Assembly (NCBI GenBank): GCA_951394405.1
Contig: OX596337.1
Span: forward strand, 3,472,001 to 3,536,000
DNA: 64,000 bases
Origin: Coprinellus micaceus
Lineage: Eukaryota; Basidiomycota; Agaricomycetes; Agaricales; Psathyrellaceae
Reading direction: 5' to 3'
Shown: in pieces, positions 47,939 through 59,826 of the stretch
Layout of the letters: each line of letters starts with the position of its first letter
How positions within the stretch are numbered: position 1 is the first letter of the stretch
The notes under the pieces: generated by a model
Told to the model about the DNA's origin: nothing
What the model saw: the letters and a program-made list of their open reading frames with translations, nothing else
Databases searched by the model: none
Made by a program: the position numbers and the translations under genes

Positions 47939-49200
47939 CTAACGACTGGTGGAAACAGATGCGCGCCAGCTCCCAGCGTGACCAAGGAGTTGAGCATGAG
48001 GAGGGGGGATTGCTGAGCCATCCTCCTCGACGGCGGAATCATTGAACGTGACTTGTTTCTTGAGCCCGACGGCGATGGGGTTCAATGATTCGGAGTGGCA
48101 GATATCGTATGTGTTGGGTATAACATGGCCGGGATTCAACTTATCCTAGGGAAGTCATGGTTAGCATACCCATCGTGATACCAAACACGAATTCGAAGCG
48201 AACCGCCGCACCTCTGTAGGCGTGAGCCATAGCTCGAGATTGTCGAAATGATGGTGCGCCGTATCTCCTGCGGTTAATGCATTCAAGGGGCTGTCAACAC
48301 CATTGCTACCCAACACGTCCCCAGGCCTGAAGCCTCCGTATTGTTCAATGACGGAAGTCGTGCTCGCGACCCATGTATCCTGTGGATACAGGAGAACAAG
48401 GAGGAACCATTGTTGAGATGTATAGCAAGATTGCGGAACTTGGGGATTCTTACCTTGTTGGCTGCGTGAGCCCCGCTCGTGCTGACCGAGTGGCTGATGA
48501 TATGAGCGACCACGGTGGTAGAGCACCGGTCGGATTCCGAGCCTCGCAAGTGAGCGAACTCGGAGTCGAACTCACCCGTGAAGACACAGCGGGGTTGGTC
48601 GCGATTGTGGACCTGCCAGTGAGGAAGGCATCAGCAACCAAAGGCATATCCGTACGAGCGCATCTCACAAGCGTCCGGAGTTTTGCGGGAGTGGTCCCCA
48701 CTGGACGAGGGAAGGGCCTGGTACTAGAAGGAGGGGTGCCTGCTGGCTCAAAGAAATGATGAGCTGAGAGAGTGGGAATTCGGCCTTTGGGATTATAGAC
48801 TGGGGATAAAGGTAAGGCTGATCAGACGACCTTGCACCGTTCTGATGAGAGGATAGCACTCACAAATACGGACCAGGGCATACACGAGCAAGTGAGCGAG
48901 CTCTAATAACTCGCCCTCGTCACCTTTACACTTGTTGATCTCCACCGCCAGAGCTGAGCTCCCCGTTTCGGCAGGGGCGAACAAAAGAGCATAACCAAGT
49001 ACACGAGCAGCCGATGGTGGGTCGAGCTGGTTCCTCATAGACTCTGAAAGCTCCCCCTGCAACCCGGGTGCGAATGTGTCCCATGCCGCTCTCGCCTCTA
49101 AGTGACGGCACTCCTCATACGCTGCGTGTCTTGCTGTACCCATCGGGAACTCGTTCACGGGTAGAGATTGAGGATGTCGCTTGCTGTCCGGAAGGAGCAT
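47939..49200 (-). CDS. HNH-nuclease domain protein, paralog 1
   Basis: Five exons on minus: 49200-48864, 48799-48669, 48612-48454, 48379-48212, 48145-47939, giving 333 residues. After a helical N-terminal domain (ARVLGYALLFAPAETG) comes the HNH core. DQPRCVFTGEFDSEF opens it, AHIISHS holds the first catalytic-type His (His193), and SPLNALTAGDTAHHHFDNLELWL supplies the Asn and later His. The last exon (HVIPNTYDICHSESLNP ... IPPPHAQLLGHA) is shared with the paralog at 56920-58216. Intron phases (1, 0, 0, 0) are identical in the two genes. HNH domains cut or nick DNA using a metal ion. In mushrooms this family is large and uncharacterised. A role in mobile-element biology is possible but unproved. 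Confidence 0.78.
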
Positions 49201-49441
49201 GGTAGTGGTAGCGGCTAAGGGACAGGAGTTGCTTCCCAAGCTTTAAATTTGAAGTCCATCCTCATGTTTCAAGCCAGCCTCCCCAATCGCAACCAGCCGC
49301 CGGAATATCGATAGGAGGGGCTCTTCGAGTCGGGATGACAAAAGCTAGACTAGCTCCATGACATGACGTGCTTGACAGATAGTAAACCCCCAGTTCCTAA
49401 TGCGAGCAAGGGGTTGAGGGGTTGCCAGTGAAGCTGGAGTA

Positions 49442-49803
49442 CAGTGCTTTGCATAAAAAACTGCAGGTCATGGAAACAATTCCGGCTTGTTTGGCGTGTT
49501 TGTTCCTGGCCAGAATTGGTCGTGATGGTCGGCTGCGGTCCTCGGTCGAAGATATGACAAGAGGTGAGGGGCCATGGGCGAGCCTAGGTTGTTGCGAGGG
49601 ACTCTGCGATTCACCCCATCGGGTCTATGTAGACCTCCATACACGCTGACGTTGGAGGCGAGGAGCACCACCCAAGTTCACTGCTCTCGTTGCTGGGCCG
49701 CTGCATCGCGCACTCGGTTGTTGTTCCCTTTCTGGGCGCTCGCAAACAAGCCAAACAATCGGAAATTGATTCCACGACCTGCAGATTTTTATGCAAAACA
49801 CTG
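49442..49803. mobile_element. MITE-like foldback element with TA target duplication
   Basis: The ends form an inverted repeat, CAGTGCTTTGCATAAAAA on the left and its near-complement on the right, continuing through CTGCAGGTC and onward for about 90 bases. The 362-base unit is bordered by TA on both sides (49440-49441 and 49804-49805), the target site of Tc1/mariner elements, whose ends commonly begin CAGT. No transposase is encoded, so it would be moved in trans. It lies upstream of HNH gene 1. Confidence 0.75.
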
Positions 49804-49918
49804 TAAGTTGGGCGAAGATATCAATAACTAAACTCCCGAATTCCTTACAGATGGGTGGGCTCTTACTAATCGTAACCAGCGTCCACGAGCTCCTTTATTT
49901 GGTAAACGGTGCCAATAC

Positions 49919-49925
49919 TAATAAA
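49919..49925. repeat. target-site duplication TAATAAA (left)
   Basis: Identical to 56823-56829 and directly abuts the TGGGGG start of the left inverted end. Confidence 0.8.
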
Positions 49926-49991
49926 TGGGGGTGTCCAATCCCTGTATGTCACGCGGCTGGCCTGTGTCACACTTCGTCACAGTGTCACGCG
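49926..49991 (+). repeat. outer terminal inverted repeat, left
   Basis: Starts TGGGGGTGTCCAATCCC and carries GTCACGCG boxes at 49948-49955 and 49984-49991. The partner is 56760-56822. Confidence 0.75.
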
Positions 49992-50395
49992 GAAACTCGA
50001 AATAGGGGCACTTGTGAGCACCTTTCGTGCCTTTCCGTCTCTCATCCCTTAGATATAAATATCGGGAGGGTAGAAATCAATTTAACATGTATATAGACAG
50101 CCAATAGAACTCATTTCACTGTGCCAACATGCGTGTTCAGTCAACTAGAGGACCAAAGGGCTCTGAGGCGCTCGTGTCACTGCTGTATTTCCATTTTTGG
50201 CCATGAGCCTGGTCGTGCTGATCACGAACGTCCGGCACCTTCTGCCCCATAGCTCTCCACTGAGTCCACTTGGAGCCATATAAAAGGCACATTCGTAAAG
50301 CTAAAATGATACTCTATGTTTCTATTTTAGTTTGGTGCGATTTATATACTTTGGTGTAACGCAAATTTGAGTATCGCAAGGGGCAACTGGACACT

Positions 50396-50679
50396 CTTGT
50401 AAAGAATAGAATTCAGTACGATCTGCTCAGACGAGCAGGGTTTGAACTTTGTAGAGACTTTCATCTCCGGCGGCTTCTGGCTATAGAACTCCAGGATTCG
50501 ATTTTTGATTAAAGGCCTACAAGTGTCAGATACTACCCAGTGAAAGGAGGTATCTCAGGAGGGAAGAAACCTACAAAAAATCGAATCGTGGAGTTCTGTT
50601 AGAATCCCTCTTCGCTACAAAATCGGTCTATAAATCATCCCAGTACGTGCAGTCGTTGTTGAGTTCTATTCTTTACAAG
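50396..50679. mobile_element. foldback (MITE-like) insertion inside the left arm
   Basis: Ends CTTGTAAAGAATAGAA and its inverse TTCTATTCTTTACAAG. A second internal pair (GAACTCCAGGATTCGATTTTT and its near-complement) lies at about 50486 and 50575. No target duplication was found. It falls inside an approximately 0.86-kb stretch that separates the outer and inner repeats on the left but is absent from the right arm. Confidence 0.6.
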
Positions 50680-50894
50680 TTTTCCCTGCCAAATTGGCCG
50701 TGACTTGAGGTGAATTCCCAGATATCTGGTCCCATGCCTGGCTTAAACACTTTTAATTTTACCAACGCACTAATCTACCATGTGTACATCTATTCCGCAT
50801 TTTATTTGAGTTGGATCTGCCGTGTAGAGCCTGCAGTCGAGCAAAGCACTCTCGGTTTCACCTATTGGCCTGTGACACGTAGACCTGTGACTGG

Positions 50895-51004
50895 CCCCTC
50901 TATGAGGGGGACCTCGATAGAGGGACCTGCGGTTTTAATATAATTTTTGGCCGGAGCCCGCGTGGGAACGAATTGCCCTCCTGATAAGCCAATGCCACAA
51001 CTGC
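50895..51004 (+). repeat. inner inverted repeat, left (next to helicase start)
   Basis: Contains CCTCTATGAGGGGG, GACCTCGATAGAGGGAC and TTTTTGGCCGGAG, and ends AAGCCAATGCCACAACTGCC. It matches the complement of 56627-56746 over most of its length. It ends 75 bases before the helicase start codon and so overlaps its promoter. Confidence 0.8.
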
Positions 51005-51079
51005 CTAATCCGGCAACGGCTGATGATTCGCGTCGCGCCTGAGTGACGCGGCGCAATTCCTTGCCTCTCTACACTCACC

Positions 51080-53194
51080 ATGTCCCTCGTTGCCGGTCTT
51101 TCACGCGAGGAATGCTTTGAGACTATCAACGAAGCCTCTGCTGAGGACCTGGACATCTGGTTTCGAGTTTTGCCTCCGGAAAAGACCCCAACGGCATACT
51201 TGGATCATTTGCACTCTGCAGAGCGGATAGATGACGAAGTGCATGCAAAACGGCTCTGCCTGCTCATCTGGATTGCTAGCGACTTCAAGCAGGTCCCTAA
51301 GGCCAAGCAGCTCGAGGCTGGACTCGCTTTCTACCTCAAGAAGGACTCGCTTGTCAAGGCCCAGACTGGATTTGGCAAGACTCTCATCCCGGTCATGGCA
51401 CACATCGTCTCGGACCCCAAAGAGCCTTTTATTACGTTCATTATATCCCCTTTGAAACGTCTCCAGTCCTCTCAGGCCGAAGCTCTGTTCACAACCTATG
51501 GCATCTTTACTCTGGCTATCAACGAAGACACCACATCAAGAATGACCAACTCTGACTGGAATGCACGTTGGCCCTGTATGACTCGGCGGCTTGTACGGAT
51601 GTGCTAACCCTCTTGGATGATAGAACTACATCTACAATGCTTCAAAGCGACGGCTCGGAACGTGCAGAAACTATATTGTTACCCCTGAGCAGTTCACACG
51701 CGACAAATGCAGCAACATAATGCCCCGATTTGGCGCTATCTGTCGAGACGTACTGGAATTCCGACGGGCCATCAAGCATGTCTTCATTGACGAAGCACAC
51801 TTCATCTATACAGCTGGACACTCAATTAGTGGGATGCCTGCGTTCAGACCTGCGTGGGGCAATTTGAATCGGCTCAAGCTTCTCCTTCCCAAGGTGACGA
51901 ACTGGCACGCACTCACTGCAACGCTCCCTCCATACATGGCGCAGGTCGTCCAGAAGAGCGTACTCAGCAAGGACTTCGTCTATGTCTGCACCACCTCCAA
52001 CCGCTCGAATATTGTATATGCAACGCATACAGTGATCGATTCGTTCGACAACATGAAGAATTTCGACTGCTTCCTTGTCAAGCCCTTTGATCCGCTGAAG
52101 CAGCCTCGCGTCCTCTTGTTCTTTGACTCGATCTCATTGGAGCGAAAAGTCACCGACTATCTGAAGGCCTCTGCCGGCAAGTATGCGGAATCGGTTTCGA
52201 TTTATCACAGTGAGATGTCTTCGGAGGCCCTAGAGCGGACGTACAAGGGATTCACAGCCAAGGATGGACATGTTCGCATCTTATGTACAACAAGTGGTCA
52301 ATCGACGGTGAGCTCGGATCACTATGAGTGGTTTCTTCCCTGACAATGTTTCAGGGGATCGACTTTCCTGATGTTGACATTGTCTGCGCTGTTGGCTTTC
52401 CTGGAACAACGACCGAGCTACTGCAACGTGGTGGTCGGACCGGACGGGCTGAAGCGTCTACAGGTCTTTTCGTTACCTTTCTCGAACCTTGGATGCAGGA
52501 GATTGAGCTTGAGGAGTTTGATACTGGGTACGATAGCACCAACCCTGATCGAACACGTGCACCTCTCAATGCACGTTCAACGAAAAGGGAGCGTGCAACA
52601 TGCTCTGGAGTCAAACTGGCACAGCTTGAGGATGAGGCTTGTATTCGAGTCCATTTCAAGGTGGAAATGGGAGATGAAAGTGACGGTGGTATGTTTAGCA
52701 TTGGTGGTAGATGTGCTTGGGGGACTCCACTGACTGTATGCTTGTGGATAGCGCTCGACTATGCCCTTGCAGTGTTCTGTTGCAACAAGCATCCAGCAGG
52801 TGGTGGCCGCCTTGAACTTGGATCTCTCTTACCCTCTTCACTCTATCTTGGCTATGATGGACAAGAGCATATGACAGTGGAGACTGTGAAGAAGACCCGA
52901 AACACCTATCGAAAGCCCAAATTCCGCACTGCACTGGACGAGGAGTTGATTGCGTGGCTTTGCCTTGTCACTCAAAGTGATGACGAGACGGTGAACTATG
53001 GGGTCGCATACCCTTATGACATCCTCTCAGATCTGGCAAGGAGGAAGCTAGTGTGGGCTAACCCTGCCACCATCAACACTCCAGATGATGTTGTGAGGAC
53101 GCTTGGTGAGGATGCTGATTGGGCAGGGAAGTGGGCACAACAGATTTTTGACATTGTTTCCGCATACGATCGCAAAATAGCTACTCAAAAGTGA
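51080..53194 (+). CDS. RecQ-like superfamily 2 DNA helicase of the mobile element
   Basis: Exons 51080-51562, 51624-52307 and 52355-53194 give 668 residues. Helicase motifs are present in order: motif I AQTGFGKT (Lys100), Ia ISPLKRL, II DEAH (residues 217-220), III TATLP, V GIDFPDVDIV and VI QRGGRTGRA (from residue 413). A Cys/His patch (FCCNKHPAGG) follows. No HRDC domain is seen. RecQ helicases unwind 3'-tailed DNA using ATP. Here the likely job is help in element transposition or repair (inference). The first intron has no GT donor that keeps frame; a GC donor (GCACGT at 51563) does and joins DWN to NYIYN. An optional in-frame intron is possible near 52686-52751. The stop lies 26 bases from the stop of the convergent DUF6589 gene. 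Confidence 0.88.
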
Positions 53195-53220
53195 TGCCCT
53201 ACATGTACACAACAGTGTAT

Positions 53221-56200
53221 TTACAGCGCTAAATTGACAGTTTCCTCCTCATCAACAAGCAGGCTATACTGGGGCATGTCTGGACCATCCAACTCATCCT
53301 CCTCCTGCAAGACTTCATCCTCCGCAAGCTCAAATGTTGGCGACTTCATATCCCTGAGCTTGGTGTTAAATGCTGCAAGTGATGTTGATTCAATCCTCTG
53401 GTACCCCACTGCACGTAGATCTGGCTTCAATGTTGCAGCATCCTGGCGGTCAGAGCACACCATATGCAGCTCAAGCTCCTTGGCCTTTGTGCACATGCGC
53501 TCGACCAGTGCTCCAGTCTTTGCTTCGGTATGTGCAGAACCCTGGTACCGAAGGTTCACAGACTTTGCAACCTGGCGCCGAAGCAGCATGACAAGATTGA
53601 TGGATGCTGAGATGTGCCCAGCACGTTCCCACTTGGAGTAGATGCCCTTTGCGGTGAAGAGTGCCTTGAGGTACCGTATGAGATGTTCAATGTTGAGGTC
53701 GATTCCCATGCCGTGTCCAGCGTTACCGGAAACGTTAATGATGAGGGTAGAGCGGACAATTGCTGCAAACTTCTCGCTCCACACATACTTGAAGCTGTGG
53801 ATGAGGTGAAGAATCTCCGTTGAATAATTGTTCGAGCCTGCACCACGGAAGGTAAAGACAAGATCGGGTAGCACACACTCAATCCGGCCAAAGTCACCAT
53901 CCTTGATAGCTGAGACAAGCTCAACCACCAGCAGCAGGTCACGCGTGAGGCGAACAATATTCTCCCGGACTGGGTCTTGAGGATCTTGAGAATCTTGAGG
54001 TGCTTGAGATGGCGTGGCAGAGGGTGAAGCCCCAGAAGCAGTTGATGTTGGCAGTTTGCGAGGTGTATAGGCCGGGGTGAATGAAGGGGAGGGTGTGGCA
54101 TGGTTCCTGATGATGCGCTCAGCGATTTTGAGGAGCTCCTCCTGGGAGGGCTTCGACTCTGCAAATGTGTCAAGGCTTTCGAACCCACACTCGGCCTCCC
54201 AAACGTTGAGAATGAGACCTTCAAGAACTTGGGTTAAAGCAGCCAGGAGAGTGTGATAGTCAGGTTTGCTGCCAGCGAGTCGAGTCTTGTCAAGGAGGGA
54301 GAAGAGTTGTGCAAGGCTGGCGGTCTCGTGAATGGTCCCATAGTGCTTCTTGTTGAGTGCCCAGATGAGATTCATGACCATGTGGAACAGTGCGATGGCG
54401 AGTTCAAGGAACTGGCGTGTGTTGAAGCCACCATCATCATGCTTGCGGTTGATTTGGACAGAGCGGATACGCGAATTTGTGAGCTGATCATTACAGCTGA
54501 TGACAGCATACTTGTTCAGCTGCTCAAGCTTCTTTAGAAGCTGCGCAAAGTAGATGTTGTCGATGACGAGGTTGTTCCCTTTCATAGACGCCTCTTCAAT
54601 TGGGACGACGTAGAGAGGCCAGTACTCTGTGCGATAGTGCTCAGGTAGGGGGCCAATGGGGATGTGCTGGAGTTCTGCCAATGTGGTGTATTTCATGAAT
54701 CCGGGGACATGCTTGCACAGGATCTTGATGATGTTGACCTTCGTCTGGTGGCGGTATGCCTTGAGCTGCTGTGGACTTGCTCGAATGTCGCTCATCTTCA
54801 AGTCTGGAGCGTTCTTGCGTGCCTCTGCAATGGGCTCAAGGAGCATGTCCTCAAGTGTGGCCATAGGAGGGGCCTTGTAGATGACTGGGAAGGTTCCCGA
54901 TTGAACCTTGGGCCGGGTGTCGTCCGTCTGCTCAACGAAGATGGAAGTCGAAATCTGGACATTGTCCCAAGCGCAGATGTGTGGGCCATCGGCAATGATA
55001 CGCGCCTTGTCAAGGCCTCGTTCACTGACAATCTCAATGGCCTTGAGGTTTGAGGAGTGGCATCTCACTAGCGCTGATTGGTGCAGGAGGTCGTTAAGCT
55101 GCTGGGCACAACCGTTTGCCCACGCAACAATTCCGAAGCCAAGTTGAACCTTGCACGAGAAATGCGAGTGAAGATAATGAATCTGCGACGCGATGATAAG
55201 CCGAGACTAGGGTGCGTCAGAATGACACACTGGATCACCCAAATTAGAAGACTCACCACAGGCCGGTTGCGTCCTTCATTCTCCTTTGCTTCTGGTTCGC
55301 ATTCATCAGCTTCGTCGTCACCCTCAGACTCTGTCTCCATTTCCGCCTCCTTCTTTTGCGCCAAGGCAGGTGGTGGGTATTTCGTTGAAGTGGCAGTTGT
55401 CAGAATACGGGTCAGCGTGGGCGTCTTCTCAACAACAGGCTCCATGATACGTTGAATGCTCCAGTCCTCCACATACTCCAGTGAGATATCCTTGGTCTCC
55501 ATACGCAGCAGGGGCTTCGCAGCTACCACTTCATCATACACCTTGCGAGAGACAAGCTCAATCGCAGTTGGAGCCACCCAGTCCTTGAACAGTTGCGCCG
55601 TCTTCTTGTGGTCCTTCACCTTGTCAAAAATTGAGAGAATACGTTCGTGGTTCGGCTCATCGTAGAACTTGTTACGGAAGTCAGTCAAGTCAAGGTTGGT
55701 GATGTCGAGAATGATGGTGAGCATTTCCGTCGGAGTGATTTCTGCTGTTCGCAGCTGTCCGAGAATTCTTTTCACCAGCTCGGGTTTGGATTCCTTTGGT
55801 TCCTTCCAGGAACTCGGACCAGGGGTAGACTGGAAAGGGATGTCAAAAGTAGGCCCACTGGGAGAATAGAGGAAGCCAGTATCGTTCAGACCCAAGCTTG
55901 AACTGAACGAGCCATCCATCCGAAGCGATCTGTTCGGGTTGGACAGTGGGGTGATATTGGGGTCAAGCGGGCTGATGTTGGTCAGTTGAGCTGGTAAACT
56001 CGTTCGTCGTAACTCAGGTGTCATTAACGGGCCAGGCCCTGCTTCGTAAATGTCACCAAAGCTAGTACGGCGGAGATCTGGACCCACACCCCGGTGACTG
56101 ATACCCATCAGTATGGTAGCAACGCACTGGAACTCAATCCAAAACACACCTGGGGCCATCCTCAAGGGCAGGAGCACTGGGAAGTGACCAGACAAACGAC

Positions 56201-56526
56201 CCTCCAAGCATGGGCTCGCTGGGCCCACCGCCGAACGTGGCAGGTGCTGATGCAGTTGAGAGAGGTGTGCACACACCGCTCGCAGTGGATGCGGGGGTAT
56301 TGGGCATCGTGGTGTAGGCCTGGGCCACAGGAATATCAATCCTCAGCTCATATGGCTTCTTCTTACGAGGCTGAACATCCTCCTTCTTCTTTCGCTTTCG
56401 CACAGGACGCTCGGGTTGCCCAGGGCGGAAGGGTCGTAACATTACACCTCCCGGGGACTCTTCAGGGGATTTATTGGCGAGATCAGGGTGGTATTCGACG
56501 TTGAAATGGGTAGGGTTGTGTTCCAT
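53221..56526 (-). CDS. DUF6589-family protein, candidate transposase or recombinase
   Basis: Exons on minus 56526-56150, 56097-55257 and 55206-53221 give 1067 residues. The N terminus has basic nuclear-signal-like clusters (RPVRKRKKKE, PRKKKPYE), then a Pro/Ser/Thr-rich region and an acidic stretch before residue 400. From about residue 407 the pattern matches DUF6589: SRLIIASQIHYLHSHF, AWDNVQIS (from residue 485), and the late NYSTEILHLIHSFKYVWSEKFAAIV ... NVSGNAGHGMGIDLNIEHLIRYLK. DUF6589 is known as a fungal family of unknown function, abundant in basidiomycetes. Its place inside matched inverted repeats with a target duplication suggests it is the recombinase, but catalytic residues cannot be assigned. 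The promoter lies in the inner repeat at 56627-56746. Confidence 0.82.
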
Positions 56527-56626
56527 GCTGTTTTCCAGGTTCTCGTGTTACAGGGTGAGGTGTAGCGAGAGGTACGAGGGCAAGCCTGCTTGGGCGCCCA
56601 CGGATTTCACAGCAGTGTCCCAAAAT

Positions 56627-56746
56627 GGCAGTTGTGGCATTGGCTTATTAGGTGGGTAATTTGTTCCCACGGGGCCTCCGGCCAAAAATTAAATCAAATT
56701 CACCAGTCCCTCTATCGAGGTCCCGCTCCGCGGCTCATAGAGGGGG
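56627..56746 (-). repeat. inner inverted repeat, right (next to DUF6589 start)
   Basis: Complement of 50895-51004 with scattered mismatches. It begins 101 bases upstream of the DUF6589 start, so the two element genes have related promoters. Confidence 0.8.
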
Positions 56747-56759
56747 TGGTTACGAGTCT

Positions 56760-56822
56760 ATGTGACACGCGCGTGACGCCTTTGTCACGCGCGTCGGCCG
56801 TATAGGGAATTGGACACCCCCA
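56760..56822 (-). repeat. outer terminal inverted repeat, right
   Basis: Ends ...GGGAATTGGACACCCCCA and contains two oppositely oriented GTCACGCG boxes (56770-56777, 56784-56791) within a CACGCGCGTG palindrome. Confidence 0.78.
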
Positions 56823-56829
56823 TAATAAA
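56823..56829. repeat. target-site duplication TAATAAA (right)
   Basis: Identical to 49919-49925 and directly follows the CCCCCA end of the element. Confidence 0.8.
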
Positions 56830-56919
56830 GTATGTAAGCACGTGCCACCGCCACCGACTCTCGATGGCTGATTTTGAAACAGGGTCTCAGCCAACGCCTT
56901 TCCTGTTTCTTCCACCACA

Positions 56920-58216
56920 ATGTCGCCGCCAAAAAATCCGTACCCCAAGCCTCTACCTGCGAATCTGTTCCCTCCAGGTACAGAAAGCCACGATGCGTAT
57001 CGCGAGTGCCTCCGTTTAGAGCAAATGTCCGAGTCGGCGTGGGACACATCCTTGCACGACCTGGGTCCGGGGATGGTTGCTCGGGTCCTCGGTTATGCAC
57101 TATGTCTCTCCCCTAATGATGTGGGGCGCGGTGCTTTGGCGAAGGAAATCAACAGCTGCAAAGGTAGCGGCGAGTTGCTAGCAAGGCTCGCCAATTTGTA
57201 TGTGTACGGGTTAATCCGTACTTGTGAGCACGAACTTCAACTTCGAGCCGGAGCACGTCGCGTCCGCGTGACTGACCCAACTCTTTCCCCCCAGTTTACA
57301 ACCCTAGAGGTTCGACCCCAGGAGGGAGTCCCGGGTCCTTTTTGGAACCCATAGAATTTGATGGCGAAATTCGGGTTGATAGTATGCCGGACGTAACGAG
57401 TGCCATTCAGAATCTTGTGAGACTCCGCTCGTCTAGGTACTACTTCGGTTACTGACGCCCCATTCCAGCTCGACATCCGCGACCAACACCGCTGCGTTTT
57501 CACAGATAGGACCGATTCGGATTTCGCTTTCTCGCAAATGCATAACGGCGTGAAATTCGGCGAGTGTTCGTGTTCTATCACCGGCATCGCCCACATCATC
57601 AACCAATCGATATCCTCGGACGGCGAAAGTGACACTTTAGGTACAAACACCAAGGTAAGGAGCATAGCTTTGTCCATTCTATTGTACAACTCTCACAGTC
57701 GCCGGACGCTAGTTTCCGTGCACTTCGAGCGTGATCGGAAGATTCGGCGGGTTCTGCGCCGAAGACGTGCTGGGTGAAGACAATCTCAGCAGCCCCTTGA
57801 ATGCCTTTACTTTAGAGGCTTCGTCCTACCACTATTTTAGCTCCCTGGATCTGTGGCTGGTACCTTCGAAGGTGCCGTGATTTTTTCCTCCAAGTTTGCG
57901 CCCGACATTGGCATTCTGACCATGCGTTATGTAGGATATCAACGGCCATGTTGTACCTAACATGTACAATGTCTGCCACTCCGAATCGCTACACAGTTAC
58001 GCCGTCCAAGGGATGAGGATCAAGTCACAGGTAGCCTTTAATCACTCCGCCATCGGGCGGGATGGCTCCATGATCCCCCCTCCTGACCCTCGACTTCTCG
58101 CTCTCCACGCTACATGTGCTCAAGTTGCACATTTGTCTGGGGCTATTGGGCATCTACGCAAGCCCTATGAAGACGCAACCGTTGTGACTGAAGGCGGTGA
58201 GTTCTCCAAGTTGTGA
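56920..58216 (+). CDS. HNH-nuclease domain protein, paralog 2
   Basis: Exons 56920-57223, 57295-57416, 57469-57654, 57713-57871 and 57935-58216 give 350 residues. It shares the full layout of the gene at 47939-49200. The N-terminal helical domain has ARVLGYALCLSPNDVG. RDQHRCVFTDRTDSDF is followed by AHIINQS with His184, then SPLNAFTLEASSYHYFSSLDLWL. The C-terminal exon has HVVPNMYNVCHSESL and IPPPDPRLLALHA. The TG of the usual CVxTG motif is TD here, a change next to the active site. The start codon lies only 90 bases outside the element's right target duplication, so the insertion sits in its promoter. Same intron phases as paralog 1. Function unknown beyond the HNH fold. Confidence 0.78.
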
Positions 58217-58425
58217 ACAGTGAAGTGAGCGGAAATTCCGAAGGGAGCAGTGTGGTGGTGGAGTGATGAGGACCTTCACCGGGTGGAGAGGCTGTTAGCT
58301 ACTCGAGGAGGTCGATGGCGCCTCATAGGACATCTGGTGATCGTGAAACACGTCGAAGTTACATTTGGCTGGAACAAAGTTGACAAGCGGGGTGCTCCAG
58401 GGACGTCCAAGGGGAAGAATATAGA
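58217..58425. other. HNH gene 2 3' flank
   Basis: No exon is seen on either strand between the HNH stop and the minus-strand frame that follows. Confidence 0.4.
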
Positions 58426-58930
58426 TCACAAATAACTCAAATCCCTTTCGCGATCCTTCAAATTCAAATACGGAAACGATGTAATACTATTCAGTTCAGC
58501 CCTCAGCACTCTGGTCTCACCTTCCTGTTTCTGCCCCGATAATATCCAACGTAGGGAGGCATCCGCCGATTGCTCGCCTCCATTATCAAGCTGCTGATGG
58601 ACTCTTTGGGGGGTCGGTTTCTTAGTGTCGGATCCTTTCGAAGGAGGGGCCGGCACGCTGTGGAAGACGTCAGCTTGTTGAAGCCGGTGGAGACAACTGC
58701 CCAGCTTCAGGAAAGTTGCCATCGTGGAGTTACTCGTCTTTATGTAAAAGTTGGCGGACATTGTGGCAATTGGCCTTGTTTGGCCACAGGCGTCTAAGGA
58801 AGCCTGGATGGCTCGTCGCGCGTCGTGGTAGGAGGCAGTCTTGAAACGAACAAAGGGAAATATATAGCCATTAGGATTTACGGGGAAATTGGATGGGCAC
58901 GGGTATAAAGCTGGACATATCCTGCAAGGA
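58426..58930 (-). CDS. open exon of unknown function downstream of thioesterase 1
   Basis: A minus-strand frame stays open from about 58930, after a CTTGCAG acceptor, to the stop at 58426. It reads as protein-like sequence (YHDARRAIQASLDACGQTRPIATMSANFYIK ... FLKLGSCLHRLQQADVF). It could be a separate short gene starting at an internal Met (58761 region). It could also be a 3' extension exon of the thioesterase gene just upstream on the same strand, since a weak donor in that gene's last exon would keep frame. No domain was recognised. Confidence 0.35.
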
Positions 58931-58951
58931 GACCGTAGTGTTATTCCCGAT

Positions 58952-59826
58952 TTAGAGTTTCGAGGACACCCTAAACCCCTCTGAGGGAGGGATCAGCCTG
59001 TGTGACGGGGGCGATGGTCGAAATTGCAAAGAGGCGTTCAATACCGAGGCACGCAGCATCTTGCCAGGTGCATTGATCAGAGATTGCGTGCCGGATACGC
59101 AGAGGCTGTCCCCATTCCAGATCTATTAAAGAGGCTAAGTGACGCTCTCTGCGTTAGGGCCGAAGGGTCGCCACTTACCTCTGTTCGGCATGTCCGTGTG
59201 CGACCGTGGAGACTGACAGAGGTGTTCACAATGCGAAGCGCGGATCCCCTGTGGAACGGGAAAGGCGTATGGTTAGTCGATGCTGGCACAACGAACGGAG
59301 TGGGGCATACTGAGGCGCTGCGTTACTCCAGATGATGTTCATCGACTGAGATAAACCAGTCCCATCCCTTCCCAGGTGGGTACCAAGCGCTACTGTCGAG
59401 CTAACCGAGCAACTGGTGGTAACGAGTCGGGCCGTGGTACGGGTGATAATTGGAACAAGTACTAACTGGTCGATGAGATACGCGGCGCATCCGCCGTGCA
59501 TAATGCCAAAGATGTTGCACATATCTGTTCATGAATTGTCAAACCCAAGCCGAAACGGCAGTCGACGACGATGGCGTACCAGGAGTGAGTCCGATTTCGA
59601 AAACGGTTTCTGCTTTCGCTGACGGGGATCTAGCGTCTCCCCATATGTTCACCTCTTTCAACTCTACCCGCTTTCCAATCTCGTGATTGAACCATGGTTC
59701 GTGGCCAACGAAGTGCTGGAAAATACCGTAGACGTAGTTCTTCGCGTCGTCCGGTGCGTTTCCCCTGACCTTGGAAACGTCGAATGATTTGAGTTGACCT
59801 TCATACTGGGGGGCTACAAGGACCAT
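58952..59826 (-). CDS. hotdog-fold acyl thioesterase (4HBT/PaaI-like), paralog 1
   Basis: Exons on minus 59826-59580, 59524-59467, 59400-59311, 59248-59179 and 59122-58952 give 211 residues. The hotdog core shows DMCNIFGIMHGGCAAYLIDQ, the central helix with the HGG motif, then DGTGLSQSMNIIWSNAAPQ and LRIVNTSVSLHGRTRTCRTE. Such enzymes hydrolyse acyl-CoA or related thioesters; the substrate is unknown. Its C-terminal exon (from IWNGDSLCVSGTQSL) is diverged from the paralog at 60513-61374, where the usual SGGQMTMPPSLPGK ending is kept. Intron phases (1, 2, 2, 0) are the same in both genes. Confidence 0.78.

What the first reader, a model, noticed from the sequence alone, without database searches (positions are those of the whole stretch)
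49919..56829. Complete RecQ-DUF6589 transposon with matched ends and 7-bp target duplication
Inverted tips TGGGGGTGTCCAAT, a perfect TAATAAA duplication on both sides, and two cargo genes fully inside make this a well-delimited mobile element. DUF6589 is, to my knowledge, a family without assigned function, so this copy suggests it may be a transposase/recombinase that works with its own RecQ-like helicase. A helicase-plus-recombinase pair within TIRs is not the layout of hAT, KDZ, Tc1/mariner or Helitron elements.
Basis: partly seen in the sequence, partly recalled or inferred. Interest (0 to 1): 0.88.

Follow-up and report, generated by a model that had tools for sequence, protein, structure and literature searches.

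The report
Helicase transposon nested in another transposon
What looked like one new helicase-carrying jumping gene is really two: a 5.9-kb fungal transposon, probably of the known AcademH type (helicase plus DUF6589 protein), that landed inside a small 1-kb transposon of a different family, whose ends were mistaken for its own.

Summary
The tips TGGGGGTGTCCAAT and the TAATAAA duplication are real, but they do not belong to the helicase-DUF6589 element. They bound a 1-kb non-coding element with at least 24 copies here. All 22 other copies fetched lack the genes; 20 carry one intact TGTGACACG, one a single-base variant, where the window copy has the insert.

The gene unit is its own transposon at 50880-56760, flanked by TGTGACACG (9 bp). 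A second copy, 99.86% identical, stops at those ends elsewhere, with its own 10-bp duplication. Of 12 elements with such TAG... tips, nine have 9-bp (eight) or 10-bp (one) duplications; three show none. Published AcademH transposons encode a helicase and make 9- or 10-bp duplications; fungal KolobokH also pairs transposase and RecQ helicase.

Verdict: most likely an AcademH element nested in an unrelated short element, a new member of a known kind. Modestly new: DUF6589 is probably the AcademH transposase, by context only; its fold could not be tested. A side find is a transposase-like family without a Pfam model, with 7-bp duplications, that probably moves the outer element.

The parts
49919..49925 (.). 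Left 7-bp target duplication TAATAAA of the OUTER element
   Evidence: Read; exact 7-bp duplications flank 17 of 21 other copies scored
49926..50879 (+). Left part of the outer 1-kb non-coding element (tip TGGGGGTGTCCAAT at 49926-49939)
   Evidence: Matches 23 other places at 72-98%
50871..50879 (.). Left 9-bp target duplication TGTGACACG of the INNER element; also part of the outer element
   Evidence: Present once in uninterrupted copies; exact 9-bp duplication
50880..56760 (.). Inner transposon, AcademH-like, 5,881 bp, tips TAGACCTGTGAC / TAGACTCGTAAC
   Evidence: Second copy L058 ends at the same two bases at another site, 99.86% identical, 10-bp duplication
50880..51022 (+). Left terminal and subterminal inverted repeat of the inner element (imperfect)
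   Evidence: Inverted-repeat pairs I1 (119 nt, 82%) and I2 (35 nt, 77%)
51080..53194 (+). RecQ-like helicase gene, at least three exon-sized open frames (51080-51575, 51624 to about 52308, about 52356 to 53194; limits read by eye). I found no canonical intron that joins the first two in phase, so this copy may not be intact
   Evidence: Pfam DEAD and Helicase_C; TIGR00614 recQ_fam E=3.2e-10
53221..56526 (-). DUF6589 gene, candidate transposase: last exon 53221-55206 with PF20231; upstream exons to an ATG at 56526 inferred by eye from open frames
   Evidence: PF20231 E=7e-101 at residues 131-559 of the 661-aa frame; frames
56610..56760 (-). Right terminal and subterminal inverted repeat of the inner element
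56761..56769 (.). Right 9-bp target duplication TGTGACACG of the inner element
56761..56822 (+). Right part (62 bp) of the outer element, ending in the inverted tip
   Evidence: 93-100% identical to the right arms of the 22 fetched copies
56823..56829 (.). Right 7-bp target duplication TAATAAA of the outer element

Best explanation
The finding is a nested insertion. First, a 1-kb non-autonomous element with TGGGGGTGTCCAAT tips inserted and duplicated TAATAAA; it was probably moved in trans by a transposase of a family (up to 1034 aa) found elsewhere in the genome. Later a 5,881-bp AcademH-type transposon (RecQ-like helicase plus DUF6589 protein) inserted near its right end and duplicated TGTGACACG (9 bp). 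The DUF6589 protein most likely binds the TAG... ends and does the cutting and joining, with cuts staggered by 9-10 bp; the helicase probably helps by unwinding ends or target. Shown: nesting, both sets of ends, both duplication lengths, linkage of the two genes. Inferred: that DUF6589 is the catalytic transposase, the role of the helicase, the mover of the outer element, and AcademH membership.
For: Second gene unit L058 matches window 50876-56760 only (of 48000-59000 compared), 5,885 bp at 99.86%, and lacks the outer tips. Of 22 fetched uninterrupted outer copies, 21 match a pattern for the empty site: 20 with TGTGACACG, L026 with one base changed; L029 gave no match. Nine of 12 TAG-tip elements examined have exact target duplications, eight of 9 bp and one of 10 bp with tips set at TAG; shifted control 0 of 144. 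These include four short copies (49, 81, 134, 140 bp) that keep little but the ends. AcademH makes 9- or 10-bp duplications and encodes a helicase (PMC10045372 passage). AcademH is low-copy in Basidiomycota, Ascomycota and Mucoromycota (PMC10799480 passage); this genome holds 26 hydrophobin and 2 Mating_N matches, as a mushroom-type fungus should (that meaning is recalled). Helicase and DUF6589 are paired and convergent at 9 of 15 DUF6589 loci.
Against: No AcademH reference sequence could be compared: the 2020 AcademH paper is not held, and the protein database was switched off. The single-sequence DUF6589 model is uninformative (mean pLDDT 34), so an RNase H-like fold is untested. The helicase searches found no partner at 6 of 15 DUF6589 loci, and two of the nine partners are weak (E about 1e-4). 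No duplication was found at 3 of 12 TAG-tip sites (C12, L073, L076). In L059, L074, L075 and L078 the repeat could be drawn 1-2 bases longer if the tip is shortened.
Confidence: 0.88

Rival explanations
1. One transposon: a 6.9-kb RecQ-DUF6589 element with TGGGGG ends and 7-bp duplications; the 1-kb copies are internal-deletion derivatives that arose through the 9-bp repeat TGTGACACG.
For: The 1-kb copies share about 954 bp of the left and 62 bp of the right end, and the breakpoint lies at a 9-bp direct repeat.
Against: The other near-identical gene unit ends exactly at that repeat with different flanks and a different 10-bp duplication. Three more divergent gene-bearing units (L057, L059, the C6 copy) have TAG ends with unrelated 9-bp duplications. 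All 22 other fetched outer copies, down to 72% identity, lack the genes.
Confidence: 0.02
2. Nested as described, but the inner element is a KolobokH transposon (Kolobok with RecQ helicase, reported only from fungi).
For: Same pairing of transposase and RecQ helicase, in fungi (PMC9587614 passage).
Against: Kolobok makes TTAA-specific 4-bp duplications; here they are 9-10 bp of varied sequence.
Confidence: 0.03
3. Nested as described, but DUF6589 defines its own transposase superfamily that converged on a helicase partner and 9-10-bp duplications.
For: DUF6589 has no assigned function in Pfam and no paper in the held library names it; no sequence link to Academ was made here.
Against: Duplication length, helicase and fungal host all match AcademH as described.
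Confidence: 0.1

Closest known systems
AcademH (Academ superfamily DNA transposons with helicase; Kojima 2020, paper not held; described in passages of PMC10045372 and PMC10799480)
   Same: Helicase-encoding DNA transposon, 9- or 10-bp target duplications, fungal host, few copies
   Different: No difference found; sequence relationship of DUF6589 to the AcademH transposase not tested
KolobokH
   Same: DDD/E transposase plus RecQ helicase in fungi
   Different: TTAA 4-bp duplications against 9-10 bp here
AcademX
   Same: Same superfamily as AcademH
   Different: 3-4-bp duplications and a nuclease instead of a helicase
Helitron
   Same: Element with a helicase, known in fungi (recalled; named with AcademH in PMC10799480 passages)
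   Different: Recalled: Helitrons lack inverted repeats and target duplications; this element has both

Membership tests
AcademH | Target duplications of 9 or 10 bp | tested here: met
   9 of 12 TAG-tip elements: eight 9-bp, one 10-bp; three without
AcademH | Encodes a helicase | tested here: met
   RecQ-like by TIGR00614 E=3.2e-10 (below its cut-off), DEAD and Helicase_C by Pfam
AcademH | Encodes an Academ-type DDD/E transposase | tested here: inconclusive
   DUF6589 is the only other gene recognised; conserved acids exist in the alignment (D240 and E464 invariant, a D-N at 81-82 in 6 of 7), but the fold model failed and no Academ sequence could be compared
AcademH | Groups with AcademH in a transposase phylogeny | not testable with these tools
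KolobokH | TTAA-specific 4-bp target duplication | tested here: not met
   9-10 bp, varied sequence; Kolobok rule from PMC9587614 passage
AcademX | 3-4-bp target duplication and a nuclease (XPG type, recalled) | tested here: not met
   9-10 bp; no XPG match among the Pfam hits of the six open frames scanned
   L058, L057, L059 and the C6 copy have TAG ends and 9-10-bp duplications

The most novel reading that the evidence does not exclude
DUF6589 is not an Academ transposase but founds its own superfamily of DNA transposases, regularly paired with a convergent RecQ-like helicase and making 9-10-bp duplications at TAG... ends.
Probability: 0.1. Interest if true: 0.65.

Novelty: new member of a known kind. 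Interest (0 to 1): 0.35.

Why it matters
It removes a false new transposon type built from two nested elements, and gives true ends and duplication lengths for a helicase-DUF6589 transposon family. If confirmed, it assigns a function (AcademH transposase) to a Pfam family of unknown function, so proteins carrying that label can be recognised as transposon genes. It also shows how a nested insertion can imitate a single element with perfect ends.

Tried and rejected
Single-element reading: rejected by the second gene unit. Internal-deletion reading of the 1-kb copies: considered, rejected. Fold of DUF6589: single-sequence model unusable (mean pLDDT 34), so no fold search was run. Sequence search for solved relatives of DUF6589, of a helicase piece and of the outer-family transposase gave nothing credible. 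Profile comparison between the two transposase candidates gave no relation (probability 0.3, on a scale to 100). Relatives in viral contigs and prokaryote genomes: none confirmed. Left end of the L031 element not found. Other fungal genomes, and empty sites of the outer element in related strains, could not be examined: the tool says this genome has no relatives there.
Full report
Observation. The 14-base tip occurs 41 times in the 50.3-Mb genome and its reversed control 0 times, so it is a true mobile-element end. DUF6589 matches its Pfam model at E=7e-101. The other gene is a RecQ-like helicase: TIGR00614 at E=3.2e-10 for the middle piece (39.4 bits, below the curated cut-off), DEAD 7.4e-7 and Helicase_C 1.6e-5 for the outer pieces.

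The ends belong to another element. A search with the left 954 bp found 24 copies including the window's, at 72-100% identity, plus one 70-bp terminal match and one weak partial hit; counts are lower bounds. Twenty-two of the other 23 were fetched (16 with both exact tips; six with one exact tip); C1:5338919 was not. The 16 are 997-1,001 bp long. Each of the 22 consists of the window's left arm joined to its right arm of up to 62 bp, with none of the genes (L027 lacks the first 36 bases). Of 21 copies whose two ends could be scored, 17 have an exact 7-bp duplication. L012, L025, L026 and L028 do not; a spurious second row for L025 was dropped, and L027 could not be scored. The window copy (TAATAAA) is counted apart. 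The same comparison at shifted offsets gave 0 of 110, over all 22 rows. The duplications lean to a C-T...A-G palindrome: C first in 13, T second in 13, A sixth in 13, G seventh in 11 of 20 sites, which include the window's and those of L061 and L062.

The gene unit is a separate transposon. A second unit at C4:4.207 Mb is 99.86% identical (8 mismatches in 5,885 bp) over window 50876-56760 only, out of 48000-59000 compared with 8.5 kb. Beyond that range nothing aligned except its own inverted repeats, and the TGGGGG tips are absent. In the window the unit is flanked by TGTGACACG on both sides, in L058 by CCCAGTCACC on both sides. A pattern for the empty site matched 21 of the 22 loci L009-L030: 20 with TGTGACACG and L026 with one base changed; L029 gave no match. 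This is a filled site and its empty counterparts in one genome.

The inner family. Exact target duplications were found at nine of 12 TAG-tip elements examined: window (9 bp), L058 (10), L057 (9), L059 (9), the C6 copy (9), and four short copies of 134, 140, 49 and 81 bp (9 each). The C12 copy, L073 and L076 gave none. Lengths are for tips set at TAG; in L059, L074, L075 and L078 the repeat can be drawn 1-2 bases longer with a shorter tip. The shifted-offset control was 0 of 144. The short copies keep little but the ends, so the ends appear to suffice for movement in trans. Not all gene-bearing copies are intact: stops interrupt the helicase stretches of the C8 copy (L057) and some others. In the genome there are 15 DUF6589 loci by my grouping of 25 matched stretches. 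Two helicase queries hit next to nine of them; all 18 stretches returned by the two searches lie beside a DUF6589 locus, tail to tail. Two of the nine partners are weak (E about 1e-4) and six loci gave no helicase hit.

How it works. The best reading is cut-and-paste or a similar DNA transposition: the DUF6589 protein as the enzyme, cuts staggered by 9-10 bp, with the RecQ-like helicase as helper. The catalytic assignment is inference. Seven aligned DUF6589 frames share invariant acids including D240 and E464, and a D-N pair at 81-82 in six of seven. The structure could not be modelled. By eye, no canonical intron joins the first two helicase frames in phase, so it is open whether this copy makes a full helicase.

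Comparison. PMC10045372 (passages seen) states that AcademH generates 9 or 10 bp duplications and AcademX 3 or 4, and links the difference to helicase versus nuclease. PMC10799480 (passages seen) says AcademH is low-copy in Basidiomycota, Ascomycota and Mucoromycota and ties DEAD and Helicase_C domains to AcademH and KolobokH. PMC9587614 (passages seen) describes KolobokH with a RecQ helicase, found only in fungi, and says Kolobok makes TTAA duplications. The claim of a new layout therefore fails. The AcademH paper itself was not available; two further papers only cite it in the passages seen. Bivalve Academ elements average 5,565 bp (PMC10294476 passage), near the 5.9 kb here. Membership rests on duplication length, helicase and host. 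The word DUF6589 occurs in none of the held papers; that is one search of one open-access library.

Side find. The outer element shares 70 terminal bp (81%) with L031, where a 1034-aa open frame with no credible Pfam match lies beside one TGGGGGTGTCCAAT tip. Its other end was not found. A protein search gave relatives. L061 (972 aa) lies between perfect TGGGGGTGGG tips with duplication CTATTGT, and L062 between TGGGGAGACG tips with CAATAAG; the other four of six loci scanned gave nothing on their own. A cross-pairing control gave one hit in 30. That hit is best read as the two outer ends of a third relative split by about 32 kb, since L063 and L064 hold the two halves of one protein on the same contig (duplication TAAACTG). 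The alignment of three shows D339, D429 and E838 invariant with a C-x-x-H between the last two. [quoted passage not shown] The family is the likely source of enzyme for the outer element; that is inference.

Verdict. Nested insertion: near certain. AcademH: likely. The finding as stated is a composite; its parts are a new member of a known kind and a possibly undescribed transposase family worth its own study.

Noticed in passing
L031:5778-8882 (+), L061:1055-4736, L062:1084-4675, L063/L064: Transposase-like open frames (up to 1034 aa) without a credible Pfam match for the one scanned (L031); three relatives lie between TGGGG... inverted tips with 7-bp duplications. Invariant D, D, E with C-x-x-H suggests a hAT/P/MuDR/Kolobok/Dada-like transposase; likely mover of the 1-kb outer element.
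   Followed up: partly
L063/L064 (C4:3119881-3154260): One such element appears split into two halves by about 32 kb of other sequence, with matching outer ends and duplication TAAACTG; content of the 32 kb not examined.
   Followed up: no
window 49926-50879 and copies L009-L030: Target duplications of the 1-kb family favour a palindrome-like C-T-n-n-n-A-G site.
   Followed up: partly
L012 (C3:2224504-2225504): A copy 98% identical to the window's outer element with perfect tips but no matching 7-bp flanks; perhaps recombination between copies.
   Followed up: no
L074, L075, L077, L078: Very short (49-140 bp) derivatives of the inner family with exact 9-bp duplications, little more than two ends.
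   Followed up: partly
window 50396-50679: Two nearly perfect inverted-repeat pairs (22 and 20 nt, 95%) inside the non-coding outer element; role unknown.
   Followed up: no
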